A DNA stretch of 64,000 nt from Branchinecta lynchi (Eukaryota > Arthropoda > Branchiopoda > Anostraca > Branchinectidae): the NCBI GenBank assembly GCA_023053575.1, contig JAKZAP010000003.1:5618561-5682560 (forward strand). The letters are read 5' to 3'. Of this stretch, positions 6,933 to 59,960 are shown piece after piece. Under the pieces are notes generated by a model that was not told the DNA's origin, did not search any database, and worked only from the letters and a program-made list of their open reading frames with translations. Position 1 is the first letter of the stretch. The number at the start of each line of letters is the position of its first letter. The position numbers and the translations under genes were made by a program.

Positions 6933-7364
6933 AGGACACCTGAACAATGAAACCATACTTGAACATACCATAGAGAATGCATTTACAGACATGGCCACGC
7001 AGAGCATTTTTCTCCTGAGCGTGACGTTTTTAAAATAGGGATCTTCGTTTCTGGAGGTTTGCACATGCAGACTCCAAGACAAAAAGCGCAATTCATTCAA
7101 ATCTTGTGCAGCGCTGATCGGATATTATTGGAATTTCTTCTAGATATACGTTTGGGCTTAACTGGTTAACAAATATTCCAGTTGATTGGAGACATTTGTT
7201 CATTTCTAAAATTGTTCGGTACTGAAATAAGGACAGATGCAAAATGGAGCAAAAATCATAGCTTGGTAACACTATTTCGTATTTTGATTGTGTTTTCTGC
7301 AGGCAATGTTAACGGAAGCCATACAGATTGGGATGATACTTGGTACTCTTCATTCAGGTGTCCT
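6933..7364 (+). mobile_element. TTAA-type MITE, family T2
   Basis: The termini AGGACACCTGAA and TTCAGGTGTCCT are perfect inverted repeats, flanked by TTAA at 6,929-6,932 and 7,365-7,368. A second copy in opposite orientation at 15,430-15,868 confirms the ends. TTAA targets suggest mobilisation by a piggyBac-like (or Kolobok-like) transposase. Confidence 0.9.
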
Positions 7365-7368
7365 TTAA

Positions 7369-21100: not shown

Positions 21101-24100
21101 TCGACGCGTTACATTAAATCATGGAGTTAAAGATCTGATTGTGGCTGCTTTAGAGCGTCGTGCTCGATTTCTGAAATCCCTCGACCCTCTAAATAGCCTC
21201 TATCCAGCAATTAAGCAGAAGTTAAGTAGTTATTAATATTTTGTCTGTCTCTCTTGTTTGCATTATGTAGTGCCAATTTAAAATTGTATTTTGTGTGTTG
21301 TTCATTTCTTTTTTCCTTTTCATTTTTCCTTTTTGTTTATTTTTCTTTTCTTATACTCCATCAGTGACATTTTTATGTAAAGATGGGTAATAAATATATT
21401 CATTCATTCATTCATTGGGCATAACAACCCCCACAACCAATACACCATGGATACCCCCCACGGAAGACAAGTAATTGAGAGCAGCAACTGCGAAAGGGAC
21501 CTTGGTGTGCTTATCGATGCCGAGCTCAAGTTTCACAAGCACACGCAAAACGTCGTCAGTAGTGGACTAGTTAGGACTCAGTAGGAGTCCTAAGGTGATC
21601 AGCAAGTTATACACGTCGCTCGTCAGGCCGAAGCTGGAAGTTGGAGTCTCACTAGCATACCCGCAATACGAGATGGACAAACGCATTATCGAAGGTGTCC
21701 GGCGACGTGCAACGAAAATGGTCAAAGGATTGCAAAGCACCCCATACCCAGAACGACTCAAAGCCCTGAACATCCCCACAATGACCTACAGGAGAAATCG
21801 TGGTGATATGATAGCTGTGTACAAGAATTTGAGCAGCAACATCCCACCCAACATTTTCGTGCCAAACACAGGAGGAACCACCAGGGGCCACCCAAAAAAG
21901 CTGAAGAAGAGGCCTGTACTGAAACGGCATGCACAGAACTTCTTCACAAGTAGGTCGATCAACTTGTGGAACGCGCTAGCAGATTCCACTGTTACCTGCC
22001 AAACAACAAATAGCTTCAAACAACATTTGGACAAGGAGTGGTCAGGCAAACAGTGGAGATTCAACTGGAAACCTGAACAAGACAGCACCCATGAAGGCGT
22101 ATATTAGGAGAAATCCTATTCGCCTGCAATTGCAAATTTGCAGGTAATTTGCAGGTAATATACAAAAGTTCTAGCCCCTCGTGAACCAATTCTTACTTAC
22201 AAGTACCTCTCCCGTGATAGACATCAAGTTGACAGATACAAAATAATGGGTACACCAGCTAGCAAAAGTTGCAAATCCCTCATCGCTGAAGATGATTGTA
22301 GCATAACAGCCGATTATTACTTACAAGTTCCTTGCATATCTTACCATTGGGAACCAAGTTGTTATTACCATCGAATACACCGGAAACAAATAACAAGTAC
22401 ACAAACTAGCAAAAGCTGCAAAACCCTCATTACCGAAGATCATTACGAGCTAACAGTCGACTGTTGCTTACAAGTTCCCTACATGTCTCACAATTGGTTC
22501 CGCCTATTCTTGGTTTCAGTGTGTACCTTACTACTGAAGTTGTCAACCCCTTTAAATTTTCAAACTGGTGTATCTCATGAAGGAATTTTTTTTACCAAAA
22601 AATGGATGACATATACTTTGATCAGCTCATCAACCGCTATCGATTGCCGTCGAAAAAAATTCTACCTGTCTTGTTCAAAAGTTGACTTTTTGGCCGTAGG
22701 CCGACTTTCTAACGTTACCACTTAGAAAGGAGCTAAGGGTAAGCTCTATTTTCTTTAGTAAAGAGAGAACTTTAACAGTTTAAGAGGCACATCTGATACC
22801 ATTTCTCTACCGCAAACCCAAGTGCAAAAAAAAAGAATGAACGAAGAATGAACTTAAACAGATATGGATAGAAACACTAGATTGCAGCACTTTCGGACCC
22901 GTGGGAAAAAGCTACTTTTTTGTTTCTGTAGATTTTTCTATTTATCACTCAAAGAAGATATGTTGTCTGTGAGGCCGGGTAACTGCCGCATATATTTAAC
23001 ACTTATAGATTTTAGTCCATCTTCAATTTGAAACTGGTGCCTGCCTGCTTGCGTGCTAAAACTGAGCTTTCCACTCGAAAGCAGAAACATGATTTGATGA
23101 AACGAAAGGTTCGCTACACAACTTCAGATAGTCCTCTCTGACATAGGCTATATAACTACACTTCACTTCGTACACCGTTGGCTCTGGCTCGAGGACAAGC
23201 AAAAACCATCCTTATTGGCCCCAGGCAAGAGTTCTATGAAGCTTTCCAAAATGTAATGTCATATTCACCAATCCGGCTTAAGGTCCACACTTTCCGTAAG
23301 AACCGCACAGGTTAAACCCTTACTAGTTGCCAGGAATAAAATGAAATCGGCGGCATAGGAAAAAAACACACAAAAAAACGAGGACAAAACCAACGTGTTG
23401 CTCTCGCAACACAAATAGAACTAAAAGGCCATAGCATAAATATTCTGTATAACTTGCAGGTATGATTCAAAGTGTTGTCGAAACTGCGAATCCGTCTGTT
23501 AAATGTCATCGAACTTCCGACATTGTCTGAACTAAACAACATCGACCCCCAGACAAACAACAGTACCAACGCTCTTAGTAGCTTTACTTACCTCCTTCAT
23601 TAGAGTCCATGTTTCCATCTTTATTTTCTTCGTCTGGCAGATTGGACGCCGGGAAGAAGAGAGTAAGGTATTTCTCATAGAACCGCTCATCGATGTCCAG
23701 AAACACACAGAAAATGACTCGATCGAACTAGAGATGGCAAAGAAAGCTTTTAGTGCGTTAGCTCCGGCAAGTCTTTAACATGATTGCCCGTGCACTCAAT
23801 TGGGGGAGGGGGGGGGATCAGATGTTCGTTCTTCCCAGCAAGTTTATCTAACTGTTTCTCAAGATCTCCTGTCCCCCCATCTCCCCCATGGTGCCCGTAG
23901 CCAACCTGATTCAGTAAATGATTTACCAAGAGCATCGGTTTGTTCTTCCCACAAAGTTCCATTCCGATCTCTCCATTCTAAGCGGGTCACGTATCCCCCC
24001 CCCCCTAATAGTTGCCGGATCCGGTCCGGATATGAAAAAGATCACTGGAGAAATGTCCTCCGTTCAATTCTTAAATTTCACTCGAATCCGATCACCCATT

Positions 24101-27100: not shown

Positions 27101-30100
27101 ACAATAGGCCTACGGAAAAAAGGCTCCACTGATGCGCTTCAGCAAATGGGCTATCAGTAACTTTAGAGAGAAGTTTGCCGAACTTTTCACCCGGTTTCCG
27201 GACCTTGAAAACCGAGACAGCTTTCTCGGAAAGTGACACCAGTATGTTGGTGGACAGCTTCGCGGCAGGAATTCTGAAACTGTCGAAAAACACAGTGCGT
27301 CACACTAATAGATCTAAACAACACGACAAGCGTCATTAAGGAGCACTTCGTTGTAACATATGAGAATTTGAAGGACCACTCTTGCTTATTCTGTCTTCTG
27401 CATTATTGCTAGCTCGCTTGTGGGATTATAACCTTTCGCCATTGTTCCATTTTGTACCTACGACTTTTAGCGCGGCCTAGCCGATTCTTGACAGTCAAGC
27501 AACGCAAACGTCGAAGAAATAAATAAATACATAAGAAGTATTGTTTGTCATTTTGGAAGAAATGGTAGATCTTCAGGGCTACTTTCTATTTTAGACTTCT
27601 TTTGGTTGCTTGGTTTTGCTACATTTGAACCGTGGCACGTTCAGTTTTCAAATATTTTGCGTTCAGATGCCGCGTCGGAGAGCAGGAAGGCTGGACATAG
27701 TCGACAAGCGCTAACAAGGAAATTGCCAGTCTGACGAGACAAATAATGGTATTTTAGAAAACCGATATTACAGAGCCATTTCATAGTAAAAAGATCATTT
27801 CTAGTAAGAGTTGTGCTTTAAGGAATAAATGGTCCATAAATATTCTAAACAGCTTGGAATCCAACATTTTCCGGGCGATTCTAGCCTTTCCATGCGTTTT
27901 CGATGGGTCCAGCGGAAAAGTGGATAGCTTTTTGTAAGTAGTCAATCAATCAGTCAGTCAATCTTTATTGTTCGAAAAACATTCTTTACGGTATTAACAA
28001 AAAAAACGAATATTTGTTCTCTCGTCAAACATAACTATATACAATTGCGCTTTTACATAGTCAAATAGTCAATAATTATACAAGAACAAGAATTGCAACA
28101 AATTAAAGCGCTAAAACCTCAACTGATAGACAAAAATGCTCCTCAGACGGGATTTGAACAAAGGACCCTCTGCTTACAAGACAGTTGCTCTACCACTGAC
28201 CTACCCAGGGCTTGTGAACTGAGTTCGCAAACCACTATAATAGTCTCGTAGAAACCGGCCATAGGAACAGTGATCCCATCCGAAGGCAAATTCATCTAAC
28301 CAGTTCACATCCCCATGTCACGGAAAAATTGTTTATGGAACTGGTCACGTTACAAGTTCCTTGTGTAAAGTGCCATCTATATTATTAATTTCCGTGACAC
28401 GGGGATGTGAACTGGTTAGATGAATTTGATCACTGTTCCTATGGCCGGCTTCTCCCAGACTATTGTAGTGGTTTGCGAACTCTGTTCACAAGCCCCTGGG
28501 TAGCTCAGTGGTAGAGCAACTGTCTTGTAAGCAGAGGGTCCTGGGTTCAAATCCCGGCTGAGGAGCATTTTTGTCTATCAGTTCACTACTTATAAAATGT
28601 TTCTATCTCCAGGGCGTCTTTCCCATTAAAATGATATATTTGATTTTATTTGGTTTTCACCATGAGACCCCGTCTTGTGGGTCCTGCTTTGTCTACGTGG
28701 CTCCGACAAGGGAGTCCTAGACTTCTAAATTATATTCAAAAAATTGTTTATGGAATTAGTCACGGTACAAGTCCCTTGTGTAAAGTGCCATCTATATTAA
28801 GTGGAGAACGATTCCAAGGAGTCGAAAAAAAAAACAAGTCAACATCAAAGTAGCAAAAAAAAGCCGCGTAAGCTAGCAAAAATGCTCGGCGGAGAGTTGC
28901 TAGTGCCCTCGATTTTTGAAAAACAAAAGTTAGAGATCATAAAAAAAAAATTCTGTGAGCAACAGCGAGTTTTATTGTCAGATGAAAGGGTGTCTGTTTT
29001 ATTGTAACTATGAATTTTTTTTACACAATACAAATGCAAAAATAAATATGGAAGGAAACGAAAATACTGGTAATTATAACTGTCTTAACCTGAATTTAGG
29101 CCGCCGAAGAAGTCCATAGGCTATACAAATGCTCGGACAAAATGCTTACGAAGGGGTTCTAGCCTTGCGACATCCGAGGGGCAATCAGGAAGTGACTGCT
29201 CCCATTTTAAGGGTACCTTCGACTTTTCAGGAGTCCCCGGGGACGGAGAAAAGATGCAGATGACACGCCTGTACGTGCAGTTGCCATCTGCGTTGCTCGA
29301 ATAACGACACGAGAATCCAGATAGCAGTGCTGTTGCCCTAAGACAGAAGACACGGAGGTATAAGAGCTGATTCTTTGAGTACTCACATTTTCTCCAAATT
29401 CTTCTAAAACTGCTCGAGTAGTCGCTAGTGCGATCTGCGCTGCTTTGTCATTGGGAAACCCATATATGCCTGTAGCGATGCAGCAGAAAGCCTAAAAAAT
29501 GCATGTTTAGCGGGAACTCCAACAGTACAACAACTGGTAAATGCATATTAGCCAGCGCCCTTAAAGTGGACACATATTACAGAGGACGTTCGGAATTTCG
29601 AGGGGTGATCCAGGCGTTTCAGATATAAGAATCTTTCGGGTTTAAAGCTATACCAGTGCGAAAGGCTTTTAGAAGTATCAGGAACAATATCCTTGAGCCC
29701 ACGCGAACATGGAAATATATTTTCATGTAATGAATATAAACAGAAACGTCAGCTACATATGCTTTGGCAGCGGTTCGGCCGTTTTTGGTTACTGCAGGTT
29801 CGTTTCTTCCGTTCCCCAACGTCGTCCCTGGCGCTTGACAGCCTAACGAGGACCCTTCTCAGAAGGGCCGTAATACTGCGGACAACGCATGTGTAGCTGA
29901 CGTTTTCCTCTGTATCCGTTATATGAGTATCTGGAACAAGTACTTACAACGGTCCGCAGTTTCCTTTGTACACACAGCTTCAGACATTCTAAATAGCAGC
30001 TCATCAATGTGTCTTCGTCACCATCCGTAGGTCCAACTGTGTGGATAATATCTAGAAAACAAGTGCGCTTATCAGACGATTGCGAAGAGGGAGTTATCCA

Positions 30101-38347: not shown

Positions 38348-38942
38348 AAAGCCTCTTAGGAGTGCCCCCAGAACTTCTCAAAGGATGCTCTTGCTGCCAC
38401 AGCACCAGTCATTGATCACCAAAACCTCTTGGCTTGGCTTTTCAGGGTAAAGACTCCAAAAGACTCACTGCATAAGCCACACATCATTATTTACAAATAA
38501 TATAAACAAACCAAAACTTCTACCAAGAGGCTTTGGCACAGCATCCTGACAGCATCAAATGATAACTCATCTAATAAATATGAGAGTTTGCATTAAGTGA
38601 GAGGGGTTGAACCAAGGTCCAAGACTGATGGGTGTGAATATGGTGTGAATGATCCCTGTGACCATCCTAAACTTCTTTAACAAATCTGATTCCATCGATG
38701 AACCTCTATGTACAATGTAGGCATCTGCAATAGGCTGCAACGAGTGTAGCAGTGCAGGAGCAGTGTACAGGTGTAGCTGTAGCCTAGCACTTGATGAAGA
38801 CTAGGCTAAAGAGAGAACGAAAGACATGGACATAGTATCAGCAAAGCCTTGCTGATAGATACTTAATTTTACAACACGGGTAAACCTATACCAGCTGAGA
38901 AACTGGAAAATACAGGATGAATGCAACTGCAACTATATAATA
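38348..38942. other. Unassigned sequence left of the giant palindromic element
   Basis: No gene or bounded repeat recognised. Confidence 0.35.
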
Positions 38943-39845
38943 CAGTTGGGCACCAGATTTTTTGGAGAATTCTCCTGCTCAAGGGAATCTCCTACTGAGG
39001 TGAAAAAGATTCTCCTGTTATTATTGATTTTTGGAGTGAAAGAGACCAGTGAAGTTAGAATATTTTTTTTTTCATATTTCAGTTCTAGAGACACCAGGAA
39101 ACTCTGTCTTGCTTCCCCACTCCCCACCCTCCACCCTAACTCTAGAAATTCTATAAAATAGGGCAGAAAACAGAAAAGTTGCATTTTTTTCCTTTACCTG
39201 GTATCCAAGAGTGGTTCTTGATGCCAGTGTGCATGACTGCCTTTACAGTGAAACTTTAGAATCCTGTTACTGACCTTATAATTCATTCCTTCCTTTCTTC
39301 TTGGAACTCATTAACTTTTGTCCAAGTGCTTTCACCTGCTGTGGAGAAAACACCAAAGCAGGATAATTCACTTTGGCAGTAGGTGTCACCTGAGGGGAGG
39401 ATTTATCTTGGGCAGGTGGAATCGCTTCTGGTGTTGAATTCACTTGTCTAGTAGGATTCACATAGGCTATTTGGTGTAGGGCCGCAGCATGTTAACATCA
39501 CTGCAGAAGTGTTCCATTTCACAGAAAAAAATGGAAATTGGTTTTTAGAAAAGATGACTAATATTTTTAATATTTTATGAATTATTATCCATGTAATTTC
39601 TTATAGCAGAGATTTTGTGTTTTTAGGTGCAGCAAGGACAAGCAGGTCAGAAAAAAAATAAGAATGTCTGTTTGACAGAAGTGGTTGCGTCCCGTTTCAA
39701 TAGAACAAAATGGAAGTTGACTATTAAACCAAGAGGACTCTATGACTGATAATTTGATATTTTAGGAATTTGATTTTTTTTTTGTATAAAAAAAATTATA
39801 ATTTTTGTATGTTAGACTACCTATAACAGAAATCGGATTTTTCTA
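38943..39845 (+). repeat. Outer left arm of the giant palindrome
   Basis: The reverse complement of about 50,165-51,066 with few differences. It contains the QLQ-like frame and ends at the GGACCCTTGCCAAGATGGCC module near 39,858. Confidence 0.9.
39276..39461 (-). CDS. QLQ-like reading frame, left arm copy
   Basis: Sixty-one codons read NPTRQVNSTPEAIPPAQDKS, then a Pro-rich stretch, then FSPQQVKALGQKLMSSKK and RNEL, followed by a stop. F-[ST]-P-Q-Q-[VL]...A-L...[IL]-M...K...R-N resembles the QLQ domain of SWI/SNF ATPases (brahma/BRG1), which follows a Pro/Gln-rich region in those proteins. Only one residue (A for G) differs from the other arm. It could be a captured host exon or chance similarity. 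No start, promoter or splice structure is proven. Confidence 0.35.
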   Translation of the reverse strand: MNPTRQVNSTPEAIPPAQDKSSPQVTPTAKVNYPALVFSPQQVKALGQKLMSSKKKGRNEL

Positions 39846-42055
39846 CGGCTGCGTGAACAGGACCCTTGCCAAGATGGCCGAATACTCACTATGACCAACT
39901 GCCTCTGAATCTCGGAATAAGGAGAAACGTTTTCTGTCAACGAATCAACGGCGTTTGGTTGAGACCCTGTTCCGTATTAACTACGGAATTTTATATCTTT
40001 AGAAAGGCCAAATACTCTATATGACCAAGTCAAACACACGGCAGTGAATCTCGGAAAAACGAGAAACGTCGCCGAAACGATGACTCAATTTTTTTGTCAA
40101 CCAATCAACGCCGTTGGTTGGGGAGAGCTCTGGTGACGGTATTTAATGTGATTATTGCCGTATTAACTAAACTCTGAAGTTTGTATCTTCAAGTTATGGG
40201 TCAACCAATCAACGGCGTTGGATGGTGACGCTTCCGGCTCTCCCTGTAGGTACACGGGCGGTTTTTCATCGACACATAGAGTTGATTATCAAGAGGATTA
40301 TAACTAATCTCGGAATTTTTTTTGGCTGTAGCTTTTTGCACTTGACAGTGGATCTCGGTAAGACCAGCGAGAAACGTCGCCCAAACGATGACTCAAATTT
40401 GTTGTCAACCAATCAACGGCGTTGGTTGGGGTAAGCTGTGGTAACGCTATTTAAATATGTTTGATTGCCGTATTAACTAAACTCGGAAGTTTGTATATTC
40501 AAATTCTGGGTCAACCAATCAACGGCGTTGGATGGTGAGAACTGCGGTGACGCTTCCGGCTCTCCCTGTAGGTACACAGGCGGTTTTTCATCTACACATA
40601 GAGTTGGTTATCAAGAGGATTATAACTAATTTCGCTTTTTTTTTGCTGCGGATTGATCAGCACTTTTGCTAATAAAGTAAAAAAAAATATACAAGTGAAT
40701 CTCGAGAAGACGCTCTTCCGTATTAACTACGGAATTTTATATCTTTAGAAAGGCCAAATACTCTATATGACCAAGTCCAACACACGGCAGTGAATCTCGG
40801 AAAAACGAGAAATGTCGCCGAAACGATTACTCAATTTTTGTGTCAACCAATCAACGGCGTTTGTTGGGGAGAGCTCTGGTGACGGTATTTGAATGCGATT
40901 ATTGCCGTATTAACTAAACTCTGAAGTTTGTATCTTCAAGTTCTGGGTCAACCAATCAACGGCGTTGGATGGTGACGCTTCCGGCTCTCCCTGTAGGTAT
41001 ACGGGCGGTTTTTCATCGACACATAGAGTTCGTCATCAAGAGGATTATAACTAATCTCGGATTTTTTTTTCTGCGGCTTGATCAGCACTTTCGCTAAGAA
41101 AGTAACACAAAAACACGTAAGTGAATCTCGGGAATAATAAGAAACGTCGCCCAAACGATGACTCAAATTTTGTGTCAACCAATCAACGGCGTTGGTTGGG
41201 GAGAGCTGTGGTGGCGCTATTTAAATGTGATTGATTGCCATATTAACTAAACTCGGAAGTTTGTATCTTCAAATTCTGGTTCAACCAATCAACGGCGTTG
41301 GATGGTGAGAGATGCAGTGACGCTTCCGGCTCTTCCTGTAGGCACACGGGCGGTTTTTCATCGACACGTAGGCAAACGATAACTCAAATTTTCTGTCAAT
41401 CAATCAACGGCGTTGGTTGGGACTCTGTTCCGTATTAACTACGGAATTTTGTATCTTTAAAAAGGCCGTATACTCTATATGACCAAGTCCAACACACGGC
41501 AGTGAATCTCGGGGAAAACGAGAAACCTCGCCCAGACGATGACTAATTTTTTTTTTTTCAACCAATCAACGGCGTTGGTTGGGGAGAGCTATGCTGATGC
41601 TATTTAAATGTGAGTGACTGCCGTACTTCAAATTCTGGGTGAATCACAGGCCAGTGAATCTTGGGAAAAACGAGAAACGTCGCCCAAACGATGACTCATT
41701 TTTTTTGTCAATCAAACAACGGCGTTGGGTGGGTAGCTGTGGTGGCGCAATTTAAATATTATTGATTGCCGTATTAAATAAACTCGGAATTTTGTATCGT
41801 CAAATTCCGGGTCTGTCAATTAACGGCGTTAAATGGGGAGAACTGCGGTGACACTTCCGGCTTTTCCTGTAGGTACACGGCTGTTTCATCGGCACGTAGA
41901 CTTGGTTATCAAAAAGATTAATTGAACTCGGAATTTTTCAGATGCGGCTGGAACAGCACTTTCGCCAAAAAAGTAAAAACAACACGCCAGTGAATCTGGT
42001 GAAGAACGAGAAACGTCACCCAAACAATGACTGAAATTCTGTGTCAACCAATTCA
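39846..42055 (+). repeat. Satellite-like array, left arm
   Basis: About 14 copies of CCAATCAACGGCGTTGGTTG occur, often in pairs 102-105 bp apart (for example 40,102/40,204, 40,406/40,511, 40,846/40,951, 41,180/41,282). Pairs are separated by 220-340 bp carrying AGTGAATCTCGGGAA, GAGAAACGTCGCCCAAACGA and GTACACGGGCGGTTTTTCAT. The motif is itself an imperfect palindrome. Confidence 0.9.
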
Positions 42056-42409
42056 TGCGTTAGAGATTTTTCGACCTGACAACTAATTTATTGAAAACCC
42101 CCCCAAAAACTGATAGCACAATTAACTAGAGCAATGGTAAATGTTTATCCTCTCATGAGCTCTACTAGAAGATATGGAAGGATTCTCCAGCGAAATCCCT
42201 CAGTTTATTCGTCATTTCCTCGATGCGTCAAGGTCTTCTAACATGATTTTGCACTTGACTGATAATACAGGTCCGCCTCCATCTGTGTCCCTCATCCTAT
42301 AGTACCGAGAAAATTTTCGTACACGTGCTAGTCAATAGAATGCCCCACTGACCCTCCATAAACACAGTAAATCGAGGCCCGACGCTCATTAAGAAGCTAA
42401 CGAAGAAAC
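42056..42409. other. Core of giant element, left edge
   Basis: Non-repetitive relative to the arms. No gene recognised. Confidence 0.4.
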
Positions 42410-42414
42410 TTACA

Positions 42415-42601
42415 AAGGTTTGCAGGCAATCTCCCGACCTGCTTGCATTAACGTACTCCCATTCCGCATAGACTCTACTGCGCTTTTAATACGTTCCATT
42501 TTATTATCCGTCCTTGACTCTCTGAACTGAAATCCCTCTAGAAATTTCGTATATATAATAAATTGAGCTGACATGACTTCAGTATACTGTCGATGACTCA
42601 T
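42415..42601 (-). CDS. Possible exon with Psq-like helix-turn-helix
   Basis: A 63-codon minus-strand frame starts MSHRQYTEV and ends IKSAVESMRNGSTLMQAGRE then IACKP, where the exon would stop at a strong donor (CCTTT followed by GTAAGT). The segment resembles a Psq/CENP-B-type helix-turn-helix (A-[LV]-E-x-[VM]-R-N-G...A-x-x-x-x-[IV]), the DNA-binding domain of pogo transposases. Following exons with a DDE domain were not found. The similarity is short and may be chance. Confidence 0.25.
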
Positions 42602-43920
42602 CGTGCACAGGGTGAAAAGTTGTCAAGGGAGGGGATACACGCTTTTTCAGGAAAGGAAGAAAAACTAAGAGACGAGACTTTATAATGTCACCCCAAGCTT
42701 GGTGGTGAAGCTGGGAGACGACAATGTTCATACATATCTAGCGTGTGTCCACAGTGTGCCCATTTTATCGTTGTATAGATAGTTTAGGAGAAGTCGCAAG
42801 CCCCTTGAGTCTGAGATCAACCGTCTGGCTTCTAAACTGGGAAGTCCGGGCTAACCGGGAAATTTGGGAAGCTTCTGGTCGTATATTATACAGCAAGAAA
42901 GGCATTGCTGTAGTGATGGGTGATATTGGGATTGCTGATATATCAGTTTTTGTTTTCGATAACCGATATGTTTCGCGTCTCGCTTCCCAAAAATTTCAGG
43001 TAGAAAATAAACGTAAACAAATATATTGCATAATCTCAAATGCAGAAATTGAAAAACAGATTGAGCATATCTATGTACCCGTTTCGAACTATATAATTCT
43101 AGAAACATAAGCTATACACAATTCTGGCTCCAAGTCCCCCCCCCCGTACTTTAACAGGCGATATTCACTAGTCAAAAGACAGGGTATTCTTAGGGTATCA
43201 CAACCGGCCACCTTGTTCGTTGTTGCCTGGATGAATTGGTTCCAATTACATTTTATACTCTTGAGTCTGAATTGTCTATTTCGTTCTGCTTGTTTGGTTA
43301 AAATGAAATTAAACAAAATAAAATCAGTAAAAAGCAAGATAGCAGCGTAATTAACGTTACATCTTTTCCTGCTTCAGTTTGGTATAGATTTCCTTTTTAA
43401 TTATGATAATTTTTGTTTAAGTATTTTCATCCTTGATTTGATCGAAAGAAAGCACGGCTGGTTCTGTTCGTTTGGAATTATATATAGGCATTATATGTAG
43501 ATTATGCAAATCAGTTATCATACTTGTTAGCTATGTAACCCGGTTGTCGCACCAAAGTATAAACACAATTACCTTGGACATTATGGACGTGTGTTGTGTG
43601 CAAGTTGTCTGGGCAATGAGTCCAGTGTATCCACTTCATGATGGAAAGTTTTCCGTTCTGATAGACAAAAAAAATCAGTAAAATTCCGACAGTTGAGAAT
43701 GAAAAATCCTTCAAAAGATCCGTCAACTTTTCGTCCAAAACCCGTCGAAAACCGTTAAAAAACCCTACGTTTAGCAGTAGCACATGGAAGTTGTTACATG
43801 CAGAATCGTGAACGTTCTCTTTTGATAGGGACAGTTACCACCGGTTAGAAACAATAGACAAGAAACGCATCTCCACGGGCGACTTTTTGTACGAATTTCA
43901 AGAAATATTGCAACTGATTC
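42602..43920. other. Core of giant element, AT-rich, no supported gene
   Basis: A 121-codon plus-strand frame (42,745-43,110) and a 90-codon minus-strand frame (43,511-43,783) have no recognisable domain. Either could be exon material of the element. I cannot support them as genes. Confidence 0.4.
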
Positions 43921-44379
43921 TTAAAGCACACCTCTTACTAGAAATGATAATTTACCTGTGAAACGGATCAGAAAAAATGTTTTCCGAAAATACCATTACT
44001 TTCCATCTGAAATTAGCGATTTTCTTGTTAGAGCTTGTCGACTCTATCCAGCCCTCCTGCTCTACAACGCGGCGGCTGGTCACAAAACATTTGAAAACTG
44101 AACGCACCGTGGTTAAAAAGTTGGAAAACTAAGCAAATAAAAGAAGTAAAAAAAAGACGATTCTCATATCCTTATATGTGAAAGAGTCGTCAGCGGACAT
44201 TGAAGATTCTGGCAAACTTTGCGTTGTGTGACGGGCAAAACTCGGCACATCCGAAAAAACGCCAAAAGTTCGTGGGCACAAAACGAAACAATGGAGAAAG
44301 GTGCGGATTTTAGAAGCTTGTGGTTGTACATGGGAGCTAGGTATATTATAAAAGGCAGAATAAGTAAGAGGGGTCCTTT
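43921..44379 (-). mobile_element. TTAA-type MITE, family T3, inside the giant element
   Basis: It starts AGCACACCTCTTACTAG after TTAA and ends GTAAGAGGGGTCCT before TTAA. It is the inverse of 27,368-27,820. It lies within the 12.1-kb element, so it inserted after that element or its core was assembled. Confidence 0.65.
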
Positions 44380-44384
44380 AAGTA

Positions 44385-45627
44385 AGTAAGATTTAGCAAA
44401 ATGTCATTCGCGATGAGAGGTATTGCAACATCCCCTTCATTTCAGCTTTTGCTGGAGAGGGTGAAGCCCCGGTAAAAGCTTCTAATATCCACGATATTTC
44501 TTGCAAAATAGAACATTAAACAAAAAACAGCGCTGAAAGCGAAATTTTTCGGAACATTAGTGGCCAAGCGTTTTTTAGGAATCCAGATGAAAGCAAGGTC
44601 TACATTATGTCATAGGCCTGTCCGTCTGTCTGTGAACACGATTACTTTTTAACTGAGTAATGGATTTTGACTGAAGTTAATATGTTGCGGTGCTTTCACT
44701 CCATCATTTTTGAAAGAATAGTAGTGGTAGCTGTAGTAGTGGTTTTTTATTGAAAAAAAGGTAGTCCAGAATAAAGTAGAATTGTTTTGAGTTTAAAAAA
44801 AAAAAATATATCCATCCACCAGGTCCGTCGTTTTATCTTGTCTCTTACAATTTCTTTTCTAGAAATTTGATCAAGGTCAACCTCTTTTATACTAAAGCAC
44901 GGTAATGAAAAACTCTGCAAATACAGAGATTTGCACAAAACCAGCTACGTACAAGCTGCGAGCCACAGGTGTGAAATCTATAATCTGGTTGGATCTATCT
45001 GTTTTATGCGCACGAATCAGCGCGTTGTCTGAATGATAAGGTAACTAAGCTTATTAAGCAAACATTGGTGTTCGATGATAAAATGCTCATGAAATTCACT
45101 ATTATAGAAATGATGAGAGATCCAGAAAAACTATATAGAATATAAGGTTTTACGCAAGATTTTCAGAAATCTGTCAAAAATCTGAAAATCCGTCGGGTCA
45201 AATTCTCATCCGTCAAGGACCCGAGAAATCCGTTTTTGACGGAAAAATCCGTCAAAGCGGGAACGCTGACACTGACTTAATAGCTTGTTCACACGGGGAT
45301 GAAACAGCGACCGATTCTCGATCAGCGGCTGATTTACGAGCGTAAATAGCGATTGACAAACATAAAAAAATCAGACGCCGATCTTCCAAATAGGCGCGTA
45401 TTTTCATCACAGTCACCCTTCGGGATAAACTAAATCCTTTGGAATGTGACCTATGATGACTCTAGACACAGTAATTAGGGGAATTAGGTCAAACTTGGCG
45501 AATTTTAGGTCAAGGCAGTTCAAATTCTGTAAGACCAATGTGAACATAGCATGATTTTTACACCATCATCCCCAGATTACTTAATTGATCTCGAGGAAAA
45601 GGTAGAATAATTTTCTAATTACAACAA
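44385..45627. other. Core of giant element, unassigned
   Basis: No gene recognised. A poly-A run near 44,800 and a CCGTCAA-rich stretch near 45,180-45,260 are the only visible features. Confidence 0.4.
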
Positions 45628-46476
45628 CGTCTGTTCTGTTTCTGTCTAATATTTGTTTTCGTTGTTTTTCTTTAAAAAAAAATAATTTAAAGAATTTTTT
45701 CATTCAACGTTCATTGGAAAATGACTGAATAACACTAAAATAATTACATTTTAGTCTCGCATTCTTTATATTAATTATTATTAATATTTTCTGTTCTCAT
45801 TTAAAAACAAAAATATATAAATGAATTTTATTTGCTTTTGAACATGAAATCCAAAGACTACAAGTCAACTATATTTGACTTTGAATAACTCACAAGATGT
45901 TTTTGTTAATTTCTAGATTTTGTTACAAACAAAAAGAATATTCGGAATTAGGTTTTTTCTTTTTAATTCTCCCGTCAACCACAAACAGTTGATGCATCGT
46001 CTGAACACATCAGCCGCTGTTTACGCGCTCATTTCGGTCCCATGTGAACTTTGCATCTTTCGTTGTCTTTTCCGCTCTGGGCAGTTTATCACAAACCAAG
46101 AATTCCCAGTTTCTGGCTGATTAACACACACCAGGAATTCATGTTTTGGATAGCTTGCTTTGAGTCGTTTACCATAAACCAAGAATTCCCGGATTTTGGA
46201 TTGTTGGCTTTCAGCAGTTACCATAATCGAAAAATTCCTGCATCAGGACAGGATACAAGTCACAAGTTTCACTGGTCGGCCCAGTACTTCCAGTTTTATG
46301 AGACATACCGTTGAAATCAGCTACGGCAATTTGCGAATAATCTGTTGTGATTTAGAAGAAGTTATGCATGAATCGTTAACGTTATGCATGAACGTTATAG
46401 GAAAAATTCAGCAGATGCTTTTGGCGGGTTTTTCGTCAATTCCTGGCAATGCTTGCTATGCTATAATTCCTAACAC
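45628..46476 (+). repeat. Core tandem duplication, unit 1
   Basis: Begins ACGTCTGTTCTGTTTCTGTC and ends GCTATAATTCCTAACAC. It repeats directly in the next 974 bp. Short sub-repeats with CCAAGAATTCCCAGTTTCTG occur within it. Confidence 0.85.
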
Positions 46477-47450
46477 ACGTCTGTTCTGTTTATGTCTAAT
46501 ATCTGTTTTCGTTGTTTTCTTTTTAAAAAATAATTTAAAGAATTTTTCCCGATTTTTCCATTCAACGTTCACAGAAAAATGACTGAATAACACTGAAATA
46601 ATTGCATTTTGTTATCGCATACTTTATATTTATTATTATTAATATTTTATGTTCTCATTTAAAGACAAAAATACATAAATGAATTTTATTTGATTTTGAA
46701 CATAAAATTGTCGAGTAGCCTATAATCTGTCAATATTCAATTTGTGACTTTGGGTTATTCTAAGTCAACTATATTTGACTTTGAATAACTCACAAGATGT
46801 TTTGTTAATTTCTATATTTTGTTACTAACAAAACGAATATTCGGAATTAGGTTTTTCTTTTTATTCTCCCGTCAACCCCAAACAGTTGATCCGTCGTCTG
46901 ACCACATCAGCCGCTGTCTACGCGCTTATTTCGGTCCCGCGTGAACAAGCTATAAGCAATCCGTGAAACAATCAGTATTTTGCATCTTGCTTGTCCTTTC
47001 CGCCCTCGGCAGTTTATTATAAACCAAGAATTCCCAGTTTCTGGCTGATTAACACAAGCAGTCCACGAAACAATCAGAATTTTGCATCTTGCTTGTCCTT
47101 TCCGCTCTCGGCAGTTTATTATAAACCAGGAATTCCCAGTTTCTGGCTGATTAACACGAACCAGGAATTCATGTTTTGGATAGCTTGCTTTGAGTCCTTT
47201 ACCATAAACCAAGAATTCCCGGATTTTGGATTGTTGGCTTTCAGCAGTTACCATAAACCAAGAATTCCTGCATTAGGATACAAGTCACAACGTTGAGCAA
47301 TTTGAAATTTGCGAATAATCTGTTGTGATTTAGAAGACGTTGTGCATGAATCGTTAACGTATGCATCGTTATAGGAAAAATTCAGCAGATACTTTTTGGC
47401 GGGTTTTTCGTCTCTTCCTGGCAATGCTTGCTAGCTGTAATTCCTAACAT
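46477..47450 (+). repeat. Core tandem duplication, unit 2
   Basis: Same sequence as unit 1, with one extra ~100-bp internal duplication (GTGAAACAATCAG...CCAGTTTCTGGCTGATTAACAC, given here in parts). Confidence 0.85.
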
Positions 47451-47799
47451 TTACAAATTACAACAGATTACATCCCAGGTGTTGTCTGTTGAAATTGCGC
47501 ATCCCTGGGTTATCTTTTATAAAAATTTGCGGCAGTGAAGGTAGCAGAAACGGTTAGTGTTTCCCGGATTAGCTAAACTGGCGGAGTTAATAACGACCCT
47601 AGGATTTTGTCCGCTGCACAAAGCCCTTGCAAAATCGTGAGCACAACTGGATTTTGTTTTATTCTGAACAAAATGGATCAGAAATACTAGATAAAAAATA
47701 AAAATGTATTGCATAGCTCCGGTGATGGCTGGCCACTCCGATGAAGTGCTTCACCAGAAGTATAAGTGTCACTGGGTCACCCCAGCTGTCACCAGCGAA

Positions 47800-50160
47800 C
47801 ACCCTTAATTGGTTGACACACAATTTGAGTCGTCGCTCGAATCAAAAAACATTTTGTTTATTTCGGCCCTTCTTGGAAGGGTTCCTGTCCGGGCAGCCGT
47901 ACAAAAAGTTCCGATTCTGTTGGCCGACGTTTCTCGTTCTCGATGTTCAGTGGCGTATTCGCCCTTTCTGAAGACATAAAATTACGAGTTTAGTTAATCC
48001 TCCTGATCACCACAGCTCTCCCCAAACAACGACGTTGATTGGTTGACACAACATTTTGAAAACGTTTCCGGAGATTCACTGGCGTGTTTTTGGAATTGGT
48101 CATATAAATTCGGACCTTATAAAGAAACAAAATTCCAAGTTTAATTAGTCCTCTTGATAACCGCCGTGTACCTACCGGGAGAGCCTGGTGCGTCACAGCA
48201 GCTCTCCCATCCAACTCCGGTTGACCCAGGATATGAGATACAAAATTCAGAGTTTAATACACATTTAAATAGCGTCGCCACAGCTCTCCCCAACCAAAGC
48301 CGTTGATTGGTTGACACAAAATTTGAGTCATCGTTTGGGCGACGTTTCTTGTTCTTCCCGAGATTCACTTACGTGTTTTTTCTTACTTTATTAGCGAAAG
48401 TGCTGATCAAGCCGCAGAAAAAAAATTCCGAGATTAGTTATAGTCCTCTTGATAACGAACTCTACGTGTCGATGAAAAACCGCCCGTGTACCTACAAGGA
48501 GAGCCGAAAGCATCACCGCAGCTCTCACCATATAACGCCGTTGATTGGTTGAACCAGAACTTCAAGATACAAACTTCCGAGTCTAGCTAATACGGCAATC
48601 AATCACATTTAAATATCGTCACCACAGCTAACCCCAACCAACGGGCGTTGATTGGTTGACACAAAAATTGAGTCATCGTTTGTGCGACGTTTCTCGTTTT
48701 TACCGAGATTCACTGCCAAAAAGCCACAGCAAAAAAAAAATCCCGGGATTAGTTATAATCCTCTTGATAACCAACTCTACGTGTCGATCAAAAACCGCCC
48801 GTGTACCTACAGGGGGAGCCGGAAGCATCACCGCAGCTCTCACCATCCAACGCCGTTGATTGGTTGAACCAGAACTTGAAGATACAAACTTCCGAGTCTA
48901 GCTAATACGGCAATTAATCACATTTAAATATCGTCACCATAGCTAACCCCAACCAACGCCGTTGATTGGTTGACAACAAAATTTAGTCATCGATTGGGGG
49001 ACGTTTCTCGTTTTTACCGAGATTCACTGCTGTGTGCAAAAAGCCACAGCAAAAAAAAATTCCGAGATTAGTTATAATCCTGTTGATAACCAACTCTACT
49101 TGTCGATGAAAAACCGCCCGTGTACCTACAGGGAGAGCCGGAAGCTTCACCGCAGCTCTCACCATCCATCGCCGTTGATTGGTTGACCTAGAACTTGCAG
49201 ATATGAACTTCCGAGTTTAGTTAATACGGCAACCAATCACATTTAAATAGCGTCACCAGAGATCTCCCCAGCCAACGCCGTTGATTGGTTTACACAAAAA
49301 TGTGAGTTATCGTTTCGGCGACGTTTGACCTTTTTCCAAGGTTCACTGCCGTGTGTTGGTTTTAAAAGCTACCGTGTGCAAAAAGCACCAGCGAACAAAA
49401 AAATTCCGAGCTTAGTTAATATCGGGTTATTTGAAATACCCCAAACAACGCCGTTGATTGGTTGACATAAAATATGAGTCATCATTTCGGCGACGTTTCT
49501 TGTTTGTCCGAGGTTCACTGCCGTGTGTTGGTTTTAAAAGCTGCCATGTGCAAAAATTCGCAGCCAAAAAAAATCAGAGATTAGTTAATCCTCTTGACAA
49601 CCAACTCTATGTGTCGATGAAAAACCGCCCGTGTACCTACAAGGATAGCCGGAAGCGTCACCGCCGCGTTCACCATCAAACGCCGTTGATTGGTTGACCT
49701 AGAATTTGAAGATACAAACTTCCAAGTTTAGTTCATACGGCAATCAACCGCATTTAAATAGCGTTACCAGAGCTCTCCCCAACCAACGCCGTTGATTGGT
49801 TGACACAAATTTGAGTCATCGTTTCGGCGACGTTTCACGTTTTTCCGAGATTCACTGCCGTGTGTTGGACTTGTTCATACCCCAACCAATGCCGTTGATT
49901 GGTTGACAACAAATTTGAGCCATCGTTTCGGCGACGCTTCTCGTTTTTCCAAGATTCACTGCCGTGTGTTGGACTTGGTCATATAGAGTATTCGGCATGT
50001 CTAAAGATATAAAATTCCGTAGTTAATACCGAACAGGGTCCCAACCAACGCAGTTGATTCGTTGACAGAAAACGGTTCTCGTTATTCCGAGATTCAGAGG
50101 CTGTCGGTCGTAGTGAGTATTCGACAATCTTGGCAAGGGTCCTGTTCAGGCAGCCGTAAA
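47800..50160 (-). repeat. Satellite-like array, right arm
   Basis: The inverse of the left array, with about 15 copies of CAACGCCGTTGATTGGTTGA. Several units keep the same open frame (…SEISYNPLDNELYVSMKN...), which explains repeated small ORFs at 48,307, 48,652 and 49,458. These are a side effect of repetition. The family H module also occurs at 47,871-47,905 and 50,126-50,160. Confidence 0.9.
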
Positions 50161-50164
50161 ATAT

Positions 50165-51066
50165 ACGATTTCTGTTGTAGGTAGGCTTTGGGTAGGCTAC
50201 CATAAAAAGAATTATATTTTTTTTTTATACAATAAAAATTTAAATTCCTAAATTTCAAATTATCAGTCATAGAGTCCTCTTGATTTAACAATCAACTTCC
50301 ATTTTGTTCTGTTGAAACGGGACACACCCACTCCTGTCAAACAGACATTTCTTAGTTTTTTCTGACCTTCTTGTCCTTGCTGCAACAAAAACATAATCTC
50401 TGCTATAAAAAATTACATGGATAATAATTCATAACACATTAAAAATATCAGTCATCTTTTTTAAAAACCAATTTCCATTTTTTTCTGTGAAATGGAACAC
50501 TTCTGCAGTGATGTTCACATGCTGCGGCCCTACATCAAATAGCCTATGTGAATCCTACTAGACAAGTGAATTCAACACCAGAAGCGATTCCACCTGCCCA
50601 AGACAAATCCTCCCCTCAGGTGACACCTACTGGCAAAGTGAATTATCCTGCTTTGGTGTTTTCTCCACAGCAAGTGAAAGCACTTGGACAAAAGTTAATG
50701 AGTTCCAAGAAGAAAGGAAGGAATGAATTATAAGGTCAGTAACAGGATTCTAAAGTTTCACTGTAAAGGCAGTCATGCACACTGGCATCAAGAACCACTC
50801 TTGGATACCAGGTAAAGGAAAAAAATGCAACTTTTCTGTTTTCTGCCCTATTTTATAGAATTTCTAGAGTTAGGGTGGAGGGTGGGGAGTGGGGATGCAA
50901 GACAGAGTTTCCTGGTGTCTCTAGAACTGAAATATGAAAAAAAAAATATTCTAACTTCACTGGTCTCTTTCACTCCAAAAATCAATAATAACAGGAGAAT
51001 CTTTTTCACCTCAGTAGGAGATTCCCTTGAGCAGGAGAATTCTCCAAAAAATCTGGTGCCCAACTG
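50165..51066 (-). repeat. Outer right arm of the giant palindrome
   Basis: Near-identical reverse complement of 38,943-39,845, ending AAATCTGGTGCCCAACTG at 51,066. Confidence 0.9.
50548..50733 (+). CDS. QLQ-like reading frame, right arm copy
   Basis: Sixty-one codons, identical to the left-arm frame at 39,276-39,461 except T-G-K for T-A-K. High identity follows from the inverted-arm structure, so conservation does not by itself prove coding function. Confidence 0.35.
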   Translation: MNPTRQVNSTPEAIPPAQDKSSPQVTPTGKVNYPALVFSPQQVKALGQKLMSSKKKGRNEL

Positions 51067-51950
51067 TAATACCAAGTCTATCAGAATTTTTCTGGAAGTA
51101 CTGCAACCATGTAGAAATATTGCTTGGTTTCCACATGGCTTTAGCTTCTTCTCCTGATTTACACTTTTCTATGACTTGAACTGCTTGCAAAACTTGAGAC
51201 GTCTGACAATTCTAATAAATAGCTACTACACAATCACATGGGTTTTTAATTTTGAATTTTCTCTAGAACAAGGAAGAGATCTGATCCGAAATACAAAAAA
51301 AAAAAAACCACAATGCCGCATTGCATAGGGAGCCTGGACCAGGGCAGGACCAGGGCTGGGCTCTGAGAGAATCTAAAAATAATTAAAACATAATAAAGAT
51401 AATGAATAACTTATTTCAATAGATTTACTGCTTTTATTATCTCATTCCTCTTAATTTACTTCCGTTTACTTCCATAGAAAGTGTCCTAAATCGGGATGTT
51501 TTCCATTTAGACGTTTTCAGCGGAGCTTTCAAGATCCAGTAGTAACGAGTGTTGTACTGAAAGCAAAAGCTGTAAGAACTAAGAATCTCAGACTGTTTCA
51601 CCATTCAGCCACTGGATGGCATCATAAGAATAAAATAAGAAAGCATATTACATTAATCTGTTTGAAAATATGGATCATAATAATAGCAGTAAGTTACTTT
51701 GCCAAGATTCTTAGGCTAATTGATTTGCATTTCCTTGTCACTGACACCCCTATCTGCCCCTACCCTATTGTCAGAACAGTTCTGTATCCAGGAGGTCTGC
51801 TTGAAACTTCTTTTCTGCTCTTTTATATTTAACCTGTACTGAACCTTCAATTACATAACCTTGAAGCACCTTGAAGACTGCCTTATATAAGTTGAAATTC
51901 CTGTGAATCCTACCTAAGCCAACCTAAGCCAGACCAGTCATACAGAAATC
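51067..51950. other. Unassigned sequence right of the giant element
   Basis: No gene recognised. A poly-A stretch lies at about 51,295-51,308. Confidence 0.35.
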
Positions 51951-53989: not shown

Positions 53990-55410
53990 TGGTTGTTAGT
54001 CGATCCGTCCGTCCGTCTGTCTGTTAGCATAATCACTCTTGAAGGGATTGAGGTACTTTTGAAACTTGAGTGTGAGGATCGCTTCGGTCAAAATACAGAT
54101 CAGGTTCGTAGATGGTCCCCATTGCTGTATATTTAGGGGTGAGGGAGGGGTTTCAGATTAAGGACGAAATAAATAGTATTAAAAAGCCAATGAGATAGTC
54201 AATCCAGAGCCTCGTTTTTGTTTCAATCGCGCTGCCGCATCGCTGCTGCAGCACTTCTTTGCTTTTGCACAATATACGTTTTTGGATTCACTTTTTTTCT
54301 TGGTTGAAGCTGCAGCGCTGCAGCATCTTGCAGGTAAGCACGGACTTGGTCGGTGAGCAAGTCCGTGATTTTCGGGAAGCGCTGCCGTCTTCCTCGGAAG
54401 CGCTGCAGTGCGAAAACGGATGTAGAAAGAATCAGCCCGGAATCGGCCGAGAAGTGGACCTGCAGCATGCAACAAAAACGAGGCTCAGGAGTAAGAAGAC
54501 ATGTTGAACCCAAATCTGAAACTTGTTTCTCGCCAAACAATCAATTCGTCCGGAATCCGGCCAAACCAGGAAAATTTTACCTTAAATTGCACTTTAGAGC
54601 AATCTAAGATGTGAATCCTGATGCGATGCTCCTACGGGCGGTGATTCTGGTAATGGGTTTACTGGTTTATATTTCATGTTGATCAAATGTTCAGTTTAGT
54701 GATAAATTTAGGGATATTTTTGGGGGGTTTATATTTCAAGTTGATTAAATGTTCAGTTTAGGGATAAGAAGACATGCTGAATCCGCATATGACAATCATT
54801 TTCTACCCGGACATATAGTCTGCCCGGTATCCAGCTGAAACCGGAAGATTTTGTATATGTGAAAGTTTTATCTGAAGTTGATTTGAGGCTCGATGTAGTG
54901 GTGAAGAGGCATGCTGAATCTGTATATGAAAATTCTTTTCTCGCCACACAAGTAGTTCGCCCGGAATCCTGCCAAAACCAGAAAACTTGTTAAAAGTTAA
55001 AGTTTATCTTAACTTGATTAGAGGTTCGATATAGGGGTAAAGAGATATGCTGAATTCGTTTTGAGCTGTATTTTTTTGCCAGACAAGTAGCTCACCTGGA
55101 ATCCGACCGAAACCTGAAATTTCCAATAGTAAGGCATGAAGTTCCTATCAGTTTTCTTCAAAGAAGATGGGACGCGTAAGAGTAGGCTAAACACACATGC
55201 TGAATCCATATTTGAATTTGGTTTCTCAGATCATTAGCCGTTGGCCTGAATCTGTTTCTAAATTTGTATAGTAAAAATTTGCAAGGAGTCTGGCGAAGAC
55301 CGGATACTTACGAGATGCAATTGTCTGGATCAAATATTCAAATTTTGGGATCCCATCGAGATCTTTGGTCTTGTTGATAAAAGAATCTCCACTAGAGGAC
55401 TACAGCATTT
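53990..55410 (+). repeat. 125-bp tandem-repeat family R125, copy 2
   Basis: It opens with GATCCGTCCGTCCGTCTGTC, then ATTTAGGGGTGAGGGAGGG, then about six ~125-bp units with AGACATGCTGAATCC, CGCCCGGAATCC and GATTAGAGGTTCGAT, and closes with TTTGGGATCCCATCGAGATC. A MITE interrupts it at 54,207-54,486. Confidence 0.8.
54207..54486. mobile_element. MITE with GAGCCTCGTTTTTGTT termini
   Basis: The ends GAGCCTCGTTTTTGTT and AACAAAAACGAGGCTC are perfect inverted repeats. The interior is rich in GCAGCGCTGCAGC. The flanking R125 sequence continues on both sides, which proves insertion. The target duplication is unclear (one or two bases). Confidence 0.8.
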
Positions 55411-58994: not shown

Positions 58995-59960
58995 ATGGGG
59001 GGGGGGGGATCCGACAACGTAAGTGGAGGGACACCTATGACTTCGTAAAAGTTGTCCGTCTGTCCGTCCATCGGTCTTTCCGTCCGTCTGTCGGCACGAT
59101 AACTGAAGAAGGGAATGAGATATTCAAATGCAACCTGGTGTGAGGATTCTTTGGGTCAAGGGACAGGTCGATTTCGTAAATGGGCTCTTTAGCCCTACAT
59201 TTAGGGGTGGGGGAGGGGGTTTAAATTAAGGGGCAACATTTTTTTTTTGGAAGCTAATGAAATAGTCGATTTAGGGTTAAGGAAATCCGAGCGGACAAGT
59301 TGTTCACTCGGAACCCGGCAAAAACCGGAAAATTTGTGAAAAGTAAAAGTCTTATTTGGATTTGATTAAATTGATTAGATATTTGGTTTGGTGGTAAGGA
59401 GGCATGCTGATTTCGAATATTAAACTTATTTTCTTGCCAGACAAGTAGTTTGCCCGAAATCCGGCCAAAACCGGAAAATTTGTTAAAGTAAAAGTCTTAT
59501 TTGGATTTGATTAGAGGTTGGATTTACAGGTAAGAAGTCATGCTGAATCCGTCTATGAAAATCATTTTCTCACAGGATGTGAAGTTCGCTCGGAATCCGG
59601 CTGAAACAGGAAATATGTAAAAAGTTAAATATTATCTGAAGTTGGTTAGAGGTTCGATGTGGGGGTAAGACGACATGCTGAATTCGATTTTGGGCTTTAA
59701 AGTTTTGCCAAACAATTATTACGCCCGGAACCCGTGCAAAACCGGAAATTTGGCAGAAGTAAGGAAGGAAGGTTTGATCAGTTGCGTCAAGTAGATATTA
59801 TGTAGGCTGTAATGGTAAACACACATGTTGATCTTGATCTTCTCAGGTGATTACCGTTGGCTTTAATCTGTTTCTAAAAACATCCCAGAAAAAAACATGT
59901 CCAGAAGACCTAATTGTCCCGACGGATCACAAATTTAATTTTTGGGATCCCATCGAAACC
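58995..59960 (+). repeat. 125-bp tandem-repeat family R125, copy 3
   Basis: Order of parts as in copy 2: a G12 tract, GATCCGACAACGTAAGTGGA, TGTCCGTCTGTCCGTCC, ATTTAGGGGTGGGGGAGGG, about five tandem units with CCCGGAATCCGG-like cores and AACCGGAAAATTTG, then TTTTTGGGATCCCATCGAAA. Confidence 0.8.

What the first reader, a model, noticed from the sequence alone, without database searches (positions are those of the whole stretch)
38943..51066. 12.1-kb palindromic mobile element with satellite-built terminal inverted repeats
Seen: perfect inverted termini CAGTTGGGCACCAGATTT, TA (and TAATA) on both sides, near-identical outer arms of ~0.9 kb, then inverse tandem arrays of 2.2-2.4 kb and a 5.7-kb core. 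Known: Tc1/mariner/pogo elements end in CAG next to TA, but usually have short termini and 1-4 kb length. Foldback elements have long repetitive arms but are mostly smaller. Inference: a large foldback-type DNA transposon, perhaps moved by a pogo-like transposase, that I cannot place in a described family.
Basis: partly seen in the sequence, partly recalled or inferred. Interest (0 to 1): 0.88.

Follow-up and report, generated by a model that had tools for sequence, protein, structure and literature searches.

The report
Giant repeat-armed non-autonomous foldback transposon
A 12-kb piece of 'jumping' DNA with long mirrored, repeat-filled arms and no enzyme of its own sits in about 19 places in this genome, apparently carried by an unidentified transposase that also moves many tiny relatives.

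Summary
38943-51066 is one intact copy of a mobile family. The genome holds 17 pairs of perfect, inward-facing ends 10.7-16.3 kb apart, plus two pairs with an imperfect left end; 18 of these 19 carry a perfect 5-bp target duplication (TAATA here). One copy sits in a LINE-like repeat, and five paralogous sites align without the element. The duplications are 5 bp with a TTNAA preference, not TA, so Tc1/mariner/pogo is excluded. Each copy has ~0.95-kb outer arms (97% alike here), inverted arrays carrying 12 and 14 copies of a near-invariant quasi-palindrome, and a 5.7-kb core without detectable coding sequence. No listed match to an array unit points to a genome-wide satellite, though only 40 of 514 candidates were scored. 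The outer ~76 bp is shared with ~220-bp palindromic MITEs that make the same 5-bp duplications. Best reading: a non-autonomous foldback transposon built like Drosophila Tetris (with its MITE DAIBAM), moved in trans by an unidentified transposase. hAT5 (5-bp duplications) is the best lead, unproven; Transib's published target motif does not fit. Eleven copies are >=99% identical over a core segment, so mobility is recent. Host unnamed.

The parts
38938..38942 (.). left target-site duplication TAATA
   Evidence: 18 of 19 two-ended copies have perfect 5-bp duplications
38943..39018 (+). left terminal ~76 bp, shared at ~80-87% with the ~220-bp MITE family
38943..39885 (+). left outer arm (flanking domain); approximate inner border
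   Evidence: inverted pairs I1, I9, I20; 97.2% identical to the right arm over 717 aligned bp
39886..42069 (+). left subterminal array; 12 copies of the motif TCAACCAATCAACGGCGTTG (<=4 mismatches) from 39937 to 41727, plus a degenerate repeat at 42021-42069; approximate borders
42070..47780 (.). core, no coding signal or domain found; contains an internal duplication (pieces of 45616-46268 repeated in 46464-47294)
47781..50066 (-). right subterminal array, inverse of the left; 14 copies of the motif (<=4 mismatches) from 47797 to 50065; TRF period 319 bp at 48414-49355; approximate borders
50067..51066 (-). right outer arm; approximate inner border
50991..51066 (-). right terminal ~76 bp, shared with the MITE family
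51067..51071 (.). right target-site duplication TAATA

Best explanation
It is one copy of a non-autonomous, foldback-type DNA transposon family. A cut-and-paste transposase encoded elsewhere (not found) recognises the terminal ~30-76 bp (CAGTTGGGCACCAGAYTTTTTGGAGAATTCYCC...), excises the element and inserts it at 5-bp TTNAA-like targets, giving 5-bp duplications; the same enzyme moves the ~220-bp palindromic MITEs. Shown: exact ends, 5-bp duplications, empty sites, recent copies, ends shared with MITEs, no coding capacity detected. Inferred: movement in trans, one shared enzyme, cut-and-paste. The inner arrays probably arose by tandem duplication inside the arms and may bind transposase or host protein; since the MITEs examined lack the motif, the arrays are not essential for mobility if the enzyme is shared. 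The transposase lineage is open; a hAT5-like enzyme is the leading guess (about 0.4).
For: Ends: 44 exact 18-mers vs 0 control, 17 inward pairs. Duplications: 18 of 19 big and 23 of 28 small elements examined have perfect 5-mers. T at 2 plus A at 4: 48 of 78 vs 23.0 (sd 3.9) for random window 5-mers, 0 of 20000 draws as high (39 sites); on all 41 sites no comparable preference lies outside the 5 bp. Empty sites: 5 paralogues at 87-100% align across the junction; in the four that the script could read there is one TTCAG. Recent: 11 of 35 core-segment matches are >=99% identical. No coding: best of 119 frames p=0.027 uncorrected; none of 10 ORFs (of 53 listed) reaches a Pfam cut-off. MITE sharing.
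Against: No autonomous partner was found, so 'moved in trans' rests on structure. Of 150 scored hAT matches (454 candidates), none lies within 10 kb of 118 listed ends; 20 hAT representatives lack the end within 1.5-2 kb downstream at up to 2 mismatches in 13 bases; the 3-mismatch hits in two related ones (L062, L074) are not ends, because their similarity runs on past them. The fifth base of the end is T, where I recall hAT ends having G. One big and five small pairs had no perfect duplication. The 73-aa arm frame has no indels in the 21 arms compared (but has some in the older relatives L044, L045) and about as many synonymous as non-synonymous changes: a faint hint of coding, p=0.19 in the frame survey.
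Confidence: 0.82

Rival explanations
1. A Transib/RAG-like (CMCT) element: this clade mostly has CA..TG termini and 2-5 bp duplications, and Transib makes 5-bp ones.
For: 5-bp duplications and CA..TG termini agree with the clade description (PMC12730594 passages) and with hopper/transib2, 5 bp (PMC3276498 table).
Against: The published target motif of hopper and transib2 is CCANTGG, i.e. CANTG within the 5 bp; here it is TTNAA with C at position 1 in 6%. No RAG1-family match in the genome, but the control genomes gave none either, so this absence is uninformative.
Confidence: 0.12
2. Movement by a P-superfamily transposase, as for Galileo, which also has long arms that can hold tandem repeats.
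For: The 1360 target motif GTTNAAC contains TTNAA; one Galileo copy has ~140-bp tandem repeats in its arms; the genome holds 13 P-type matches.
Against: 1360 duplicates 7 bp and the P-element 8; here it is 5, with no preference beyond. By eye, none of the 13 P-type matches is near a listed end (ends were listed fully only for the big-type 18-mer, and for C1 to C13 for the MITE type).
Confidence: 0.08
3. A degenerate, formerly self-sufficient giant element whose own multi-exon transposase gene lies unrecognised in the 5.7-kb core or runs into the arms.
For: The core is kept at mostly 93-97% between subfamilies; an arm frame of 71-73 aa is indel-free among the full copies compared.
Against: No convincing coding signal in 119 frames over 8 copies; no Pfam match above cut-off in 10 ORFs; some copies with good ends lack parts of the core (L009, L027).
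Confidence: 0.1
4. An assembly artefact: false inverted duplication of one locus.
For: None found; artificial inverted arms are a known failure of assemblies (general knowledge).
Against: 19 loci with different flanks, 18 with matched duplications; in young copies the two arms differ by 2.2-2.8% while the same 5' arm is 99.9% alike among copies.
Confidence: 0.01

Closest known systems
Tetris (Drosophila virilis foldback) with its MITE DAIBAM
   Same: Arms with an outer flanking domain (up to 866 bp there, ~0.95 kb here) then tandem repeats; middle without coding capacity; no autonomous partner found; ends shared with a MITE (PMC4079207: passages and one section).
   Different: Tetris duplicates 8-10 bp and its authors suggest Mutator; ~220-bp repeats; arms up to 1,735 bp; 3 structurally complete copies. 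Here 5 bp, a ~319-bp unit with two motif contexts, arms ~3.1-3.3 kb, 19 two-ended copies.
Galileo (P superfamily)
   Same: Very long arms; a 9,021-bp copy consists of two arms with tandem repeats and no transposase segment (PMC4168063 passages).
   Different: Galileo has copies with a transposase segment; 1360 and the P-element, of the same superfamily, duplicate 7 and 8 bp.
hAT5 group of hAT
   Same: 5-bp duplications (PMC12730594 passage citing Kapitonov and Jurka 2007); T at 2 and A at the penultimate position parallel the hobo motif NTNNNNAN.
   Different: No hAT transposase tied to these ends; fifth end base is T, against the hAT end consensus that I recall.
Transib
   Same: 5-bp duplications; CA..TG ends.
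   Different: Target motif CCANTGG versus TTNAA here.
Ginger2/TDD
   Different: Termini TGTNR and Ginger2 target RTATAY; here CAGTT and TTNAA.

Membership tests
Tc1/mariner/pogo | TA target duplication | tested here: not met
   18 perfect 5-bp duplications in 19 big copies, of varied sequence
Foldback-type elements (Tetris-like architecture) | long inverted arms containing tandem repeats around a middle domain | tested here: met
Foldback-type elements (Tetris-like architecture) | 8-10 bp duplications, as Tetris | tested here: not met
   5 bp
hAT5 | 5-bp duplication | tested here: met
hAT5 | hAT-type target: T second, A penultimate | tested here: met
   48 of 78 vs 23.0 expected; carrying the 8-bp hAT motif over to 5 bp is my inference
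hAT5 | hAT transposase within the same ends | tested here: inconclusive
   none in 20 representatives or within 10 kb of 118 listed ends; only 150 of 454 candidates scored and not all ends listed
hAT5 | hAT end consensus YARNG (recalled) | tested here: not met
   end is CAGTT; the fifth base differs
Transib | target motif CCANTGG | tested here: not met
   TTNAA vs published table
Transib | RAG1-like transposase | tested here: inconclusive
   0 matches but no positive control
P superfamily (Galileo) | 7-8 bp duplication | tested here: not met
   5 bp
Ginger2/TDD | TGTNR termini | tested here: not met
   ends CAGTT; TGTNR

The most novel reading that the evidence does not exclude
The big elements and their MITEs belong to an undescribed transposase lineage defined by CAG..CTG ends and 5-bp TTNAA targets, and the 26 motif copies in the arms are its (or a CCAAT-box-binding host protein's) docking array, kept near-invariant while the sequence between them drifts: a transposon that grew a satellite to gather its mobiliser.
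Probability: 0.15. Interest if true: 0.65.

Novelty: new variant of a known kind. Interest (0 to 1): 0.42.

Why it matters
Tetris, the closest published parallel, had three structurally complete copies. Here a large foldback element with arrays in its arms has 19 two-ended copies, is recent, and has empty sites and MITE partners, so how arms grow arrays, whether the arrays aid mobility, and how inverted arms survive transposition can be compared copy by copy. It also gives a clean 5-bp TTNAA target signature to look for when naming the transposase. No paper in the held library prints the first 15 bases of the end, and TTNAA with 'transposon' finds none; repeat databases could not be searched.

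Tried and rejected
Pogo/Tc1/mariner: rejected by 5-bp duplications. Ginger2: rejected by termini. Transib: set aside on target motif. A genome-wide satellite as source of the arrays: no sign in the listed matches, but 474 of 514 candidates were not scored. A coding core: no convincing signal in 119 frames, no Rfam match at gathering scores, no Pfam match above cut-off in 10 of 53 listed ORFs (two sub-threshold ones, DUF1883 and Cu2_monoox_C).

Autonomous partner: 20 stretches at MITE-type ends fetched, six followed 4 kb further: MITEs, unpaired MITE-like ends, a MITE with a reverse-transcriptase-like frame inside (L046, by eye), and three relatives of the big element (L037, L044, L045). Six unpaired big-type ends: five truncated or interrupted copies and one 933-bp MITE-type element carrying another palindrome. 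Two of these (L076, L079) stop at the same point, ~169 bp in, and could be ends of a differently filled element; unresolved. Among the 100 of 182 MITE-type ends listed I saw, by eye, no inward pair 2-10 kb apart. The PF05699, PF12940 and PF21787 searches rang in none of the 14 control genomes. One search was a poor query: I used an arm frame with two stops, not the longest open frame.

Array constraint: motif sites differ in 1.9% of cells against 2.9% elsewhere in the arrays, but 143 of 5000 random placements do as well; weak. The motif alignment was made from sites chosen by the motif, so its information content is inflated inside the motif. No motif in the 17 MITE-type sequences scanned.
Full report
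WHAT IS THERE. The element runs from 38943 to 51066 (12,124 bp), flanked by TAATA on both sides. From outside in: terminal ~76 bp; outer arm of about 0.95 kb (694 nt at 97% complementarity without gaps, then pieces to ~1 kb); an array of diverged repeats, about 2.2-2.3 kb, inverted between the two sides; and a core of about 5.7 kb with an internal duplication. The arrays hold 12 (left) and 14 (right) copies of TCAACCAATCAACGGCGTTG at up to 4 mismatches, all pointing inward, with a recurrent spacing of 103-107 bp. They fall into two sequence contexts that share little but this motif (by inspection). The extended centre, CCAATCAACGGCGTTGGTTGG, is a quasi-palindrome and contains a CCAAT box (general knowledge). 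In one context TATTTAAAT follows about 23 bp after the motif (read). The motif differs less between copies than its surroundings, but only weakly so.

IT IS A MOBILE FAMILY. The genome (575.7 Mb, 216 contigs, unnamed) holds the exact 18-bp end 44 times, the reversed control 0 times; 34 of the 44 form 17 inward pairs. Ten pairs were read in full: 10,749-16,332 bp, collinear with the window copy, aligned blocks mostly 93-99.8% identical, array blocks down to 83%. Extra length is largely insertions, one of them carrying an 860-aa frame with a reverse-transcriptase domain (L018). Two more pairs have an imperfect left end. Of these 19 two-ended copies, 18 have a perfect 5-bp duplication; the exception, C14:12523212-12535237, has a damaged left end. 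For the copy at C12:19344156-19356288, removing the element and one TTCAG gives a sequence that aligns across the junction at five other places (100, 99, 98, 91 and 87% identity), while the two remaining matches are the occupied site's own flanks. Four of the five could be read at the junction and hold one TTCAG; the fifth, the 87% one, was not recovered by the script. The target repeat reads as a LINE ORF1-like frame across the rejoined site (by eye; a zinc knuckle falls below the Pfam cut-off). So this is a precise insertion. Eleven copies are at least 99% identical over a 432-bp core segment, out of 35 matches of any kind. The same 5' arm is on average 99.9% identical among five young copies, while within four of these the two arms differ by 2.2-2.8% (the fifth, L015, and L009 have insertions in an arm and give misleading low figures; across the other nine of eleven copies arms differ by 0.4-3.1%). 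So the family moved recently, the arms are not made equal at each move, and the structure is no assembly accident.

TARGETS AND ENDS. Over 39 sites, T at position 2 plus A at position 4 occur 48 times of 78 against 23.0 expected from random window 5-mers (0 of 20000 draws as high). With 41 sites (18 big, 23 small; one big and five small pairs lacked a perfect duplication and were left out) the orientation-free frequencies are T 59%, T 60%, no clear preference at the centre, A 60%, A 59%, with nothing comparable outside. Ends with up to 3 mismatches number 665 against 140 for the reversed pattern. The variant CAGTTGGGCACCAGACTT occurs 182 times. Where pairs were read, most are palindromic elements of about 190-245 bp (one of 112 bp; longer ones of 933 and 1,756 bp hold other insertions), alike to the big element at about 80-87% over the outer ~76 bp. 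They too make 5-bp duplications. This matches Tetris and DAIBAM, where the authors think both are likely moved by the same autonomous element (PMC4079207, passages and one section).

NO ENZYME OF ITS OWN. The longest stop-to-stop frame in the core is 134 aa. Ten ORFs have no Pfam match above cut-off. Across eight aligned copies and 119 frames of 45 aa or more, no frame shows a convincing excess of synonymous change (best p=0.027 uncorrected). A 71-73-aa frame in the outer arm, reading outward at both ends, is free of indels in the 21 arms compared, though not in the older relatives L044 and L045, and has a mild synonymous excess against the window's right arm, but p=0.19 in the frame survey; a lead only.

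WHO MOVES IT. Unknown. 5-bp duplications with CA..TG ends fit two described groups: hAT5 (PMC12730594 passages) and Transib within the CMCT clade (same passages). The Transib elements hopper and transib2 target CCANTGG (PMC3276498 table), unlike TTNAA. The previous motif for hobo, a hAT, is given as NTNNNNAN in that table; T second and A penultimate is what is seen here, which favours hAT5, but the extension to 5 bp is my inference and the fifth end base does not fit the hAT consensus that I recall. hAT matches are plentiful (150 scored of 454 candidates), yet none of those lies within 10 kb of the 118 listed ends compared (nearest 24.8 kb), and none of 20 representatives has such an end (up to 2 mismatches in 13 bases) within 1.5-2 kb downstream. 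1360, a P-superfamily element, targets GTTNAAC but duplicates 7 bp; the 13 P-type matches are not near the listed ends by eye. Not all ends could be listed, so an autonomous copy may still be present.

THE ARRAYS. The listed matches to a 294-bp array unit (227 in total, list cut, 40 of 514 candidates scored) fall in the two-ended copies, or on C3 and C20 beside an end, on C93, which also has a core match, or on C58, which I did not examine. As far as seen, the arrays are a feature of the element. The Tetris paper, citing work on Galileo, says that tandem repeats in the arms carry extra transposase-binding sites (passage), and Hermes, a hAT, binds several subterminal repeats, two of them forming a quasi-palindrome (PMC10368747 passages). 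A docking function here is plausible but untested; the 17 MITE-type sequences scanned lack the motif, so it cannot be strictly required if the enzyme is the same.

VERDICT. A real, recent, well-delimited non-autonomous transposon family; a known kind of architecture (Tetris-like foldback) in an unusual combination: 5-bp TTNAA targets, arrays with a conserved quasi-palindrome, and 19 two-ended copies. The host could not be named; an Integrator subunit 10-like ORF beside one truncated copy suggests an animal, by inference.

Noticed in passing
L047, L102-L115 (e.g. C5:9110717-9110939): A family of ~220-bp, almost fully palindromic MITEs; their end variant occurs 182 times in the genome and they share ends and 5-bp duplications with the finding.
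   Followed up: yes
L076:1045-2988 (C16:10977196-10979139): An uninterrupted 648-aa frame matching Integrator complex subunit 10 (E 3.7e-61) about 0.8 kb from a truncated arm of this element: a retrocopy or an intronless gene.
   Followed up: partly
window 11738-12027, 54759-55055, 59374-59613: A 137-bp-period tandem repeat occurs in short arrays (first two places); the places are ~74% alike in inverted orientation: a dispersed satellite-like repeat.
   Followed up: no
window 6926-7368 and 15426-15875: Two ~450-bp inverted repeats 90% alike, 8 kb apart, whose outer sequences do not align: not an obvious second foldback element.
   Followed up: partly
window 43917-44157 and 27585-27826: A 243-bp piece of the core is 78% alike to another place in the window, so the core has picked up or shares an interspersed repeat.
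   Followed up: no
window 1-2000 and 18595-22104: LINE-like remnants: an endonuclease-like frame at 24.4 bits against a 24.5 cut-off, and two reverse-transcriptase frames that overlap at 19842-20016.
   Followed up: no
L076 and L079, ~169 bp into the element: Two unpaired big-type ends lose similarity at the same point (after GGAAACTCTGTCTTG) and continue with unrelated DNA: truncated copies or ends of a differently filled element.
   Followed up: partly
L078:3-665 (reverse strand): A 221-aa frame some 2.7 kb beyond a truncated copy has a Myb/SANT-like domain just under the Pfam cut-off (25.6 of 27 bits).
   Followed up: partly
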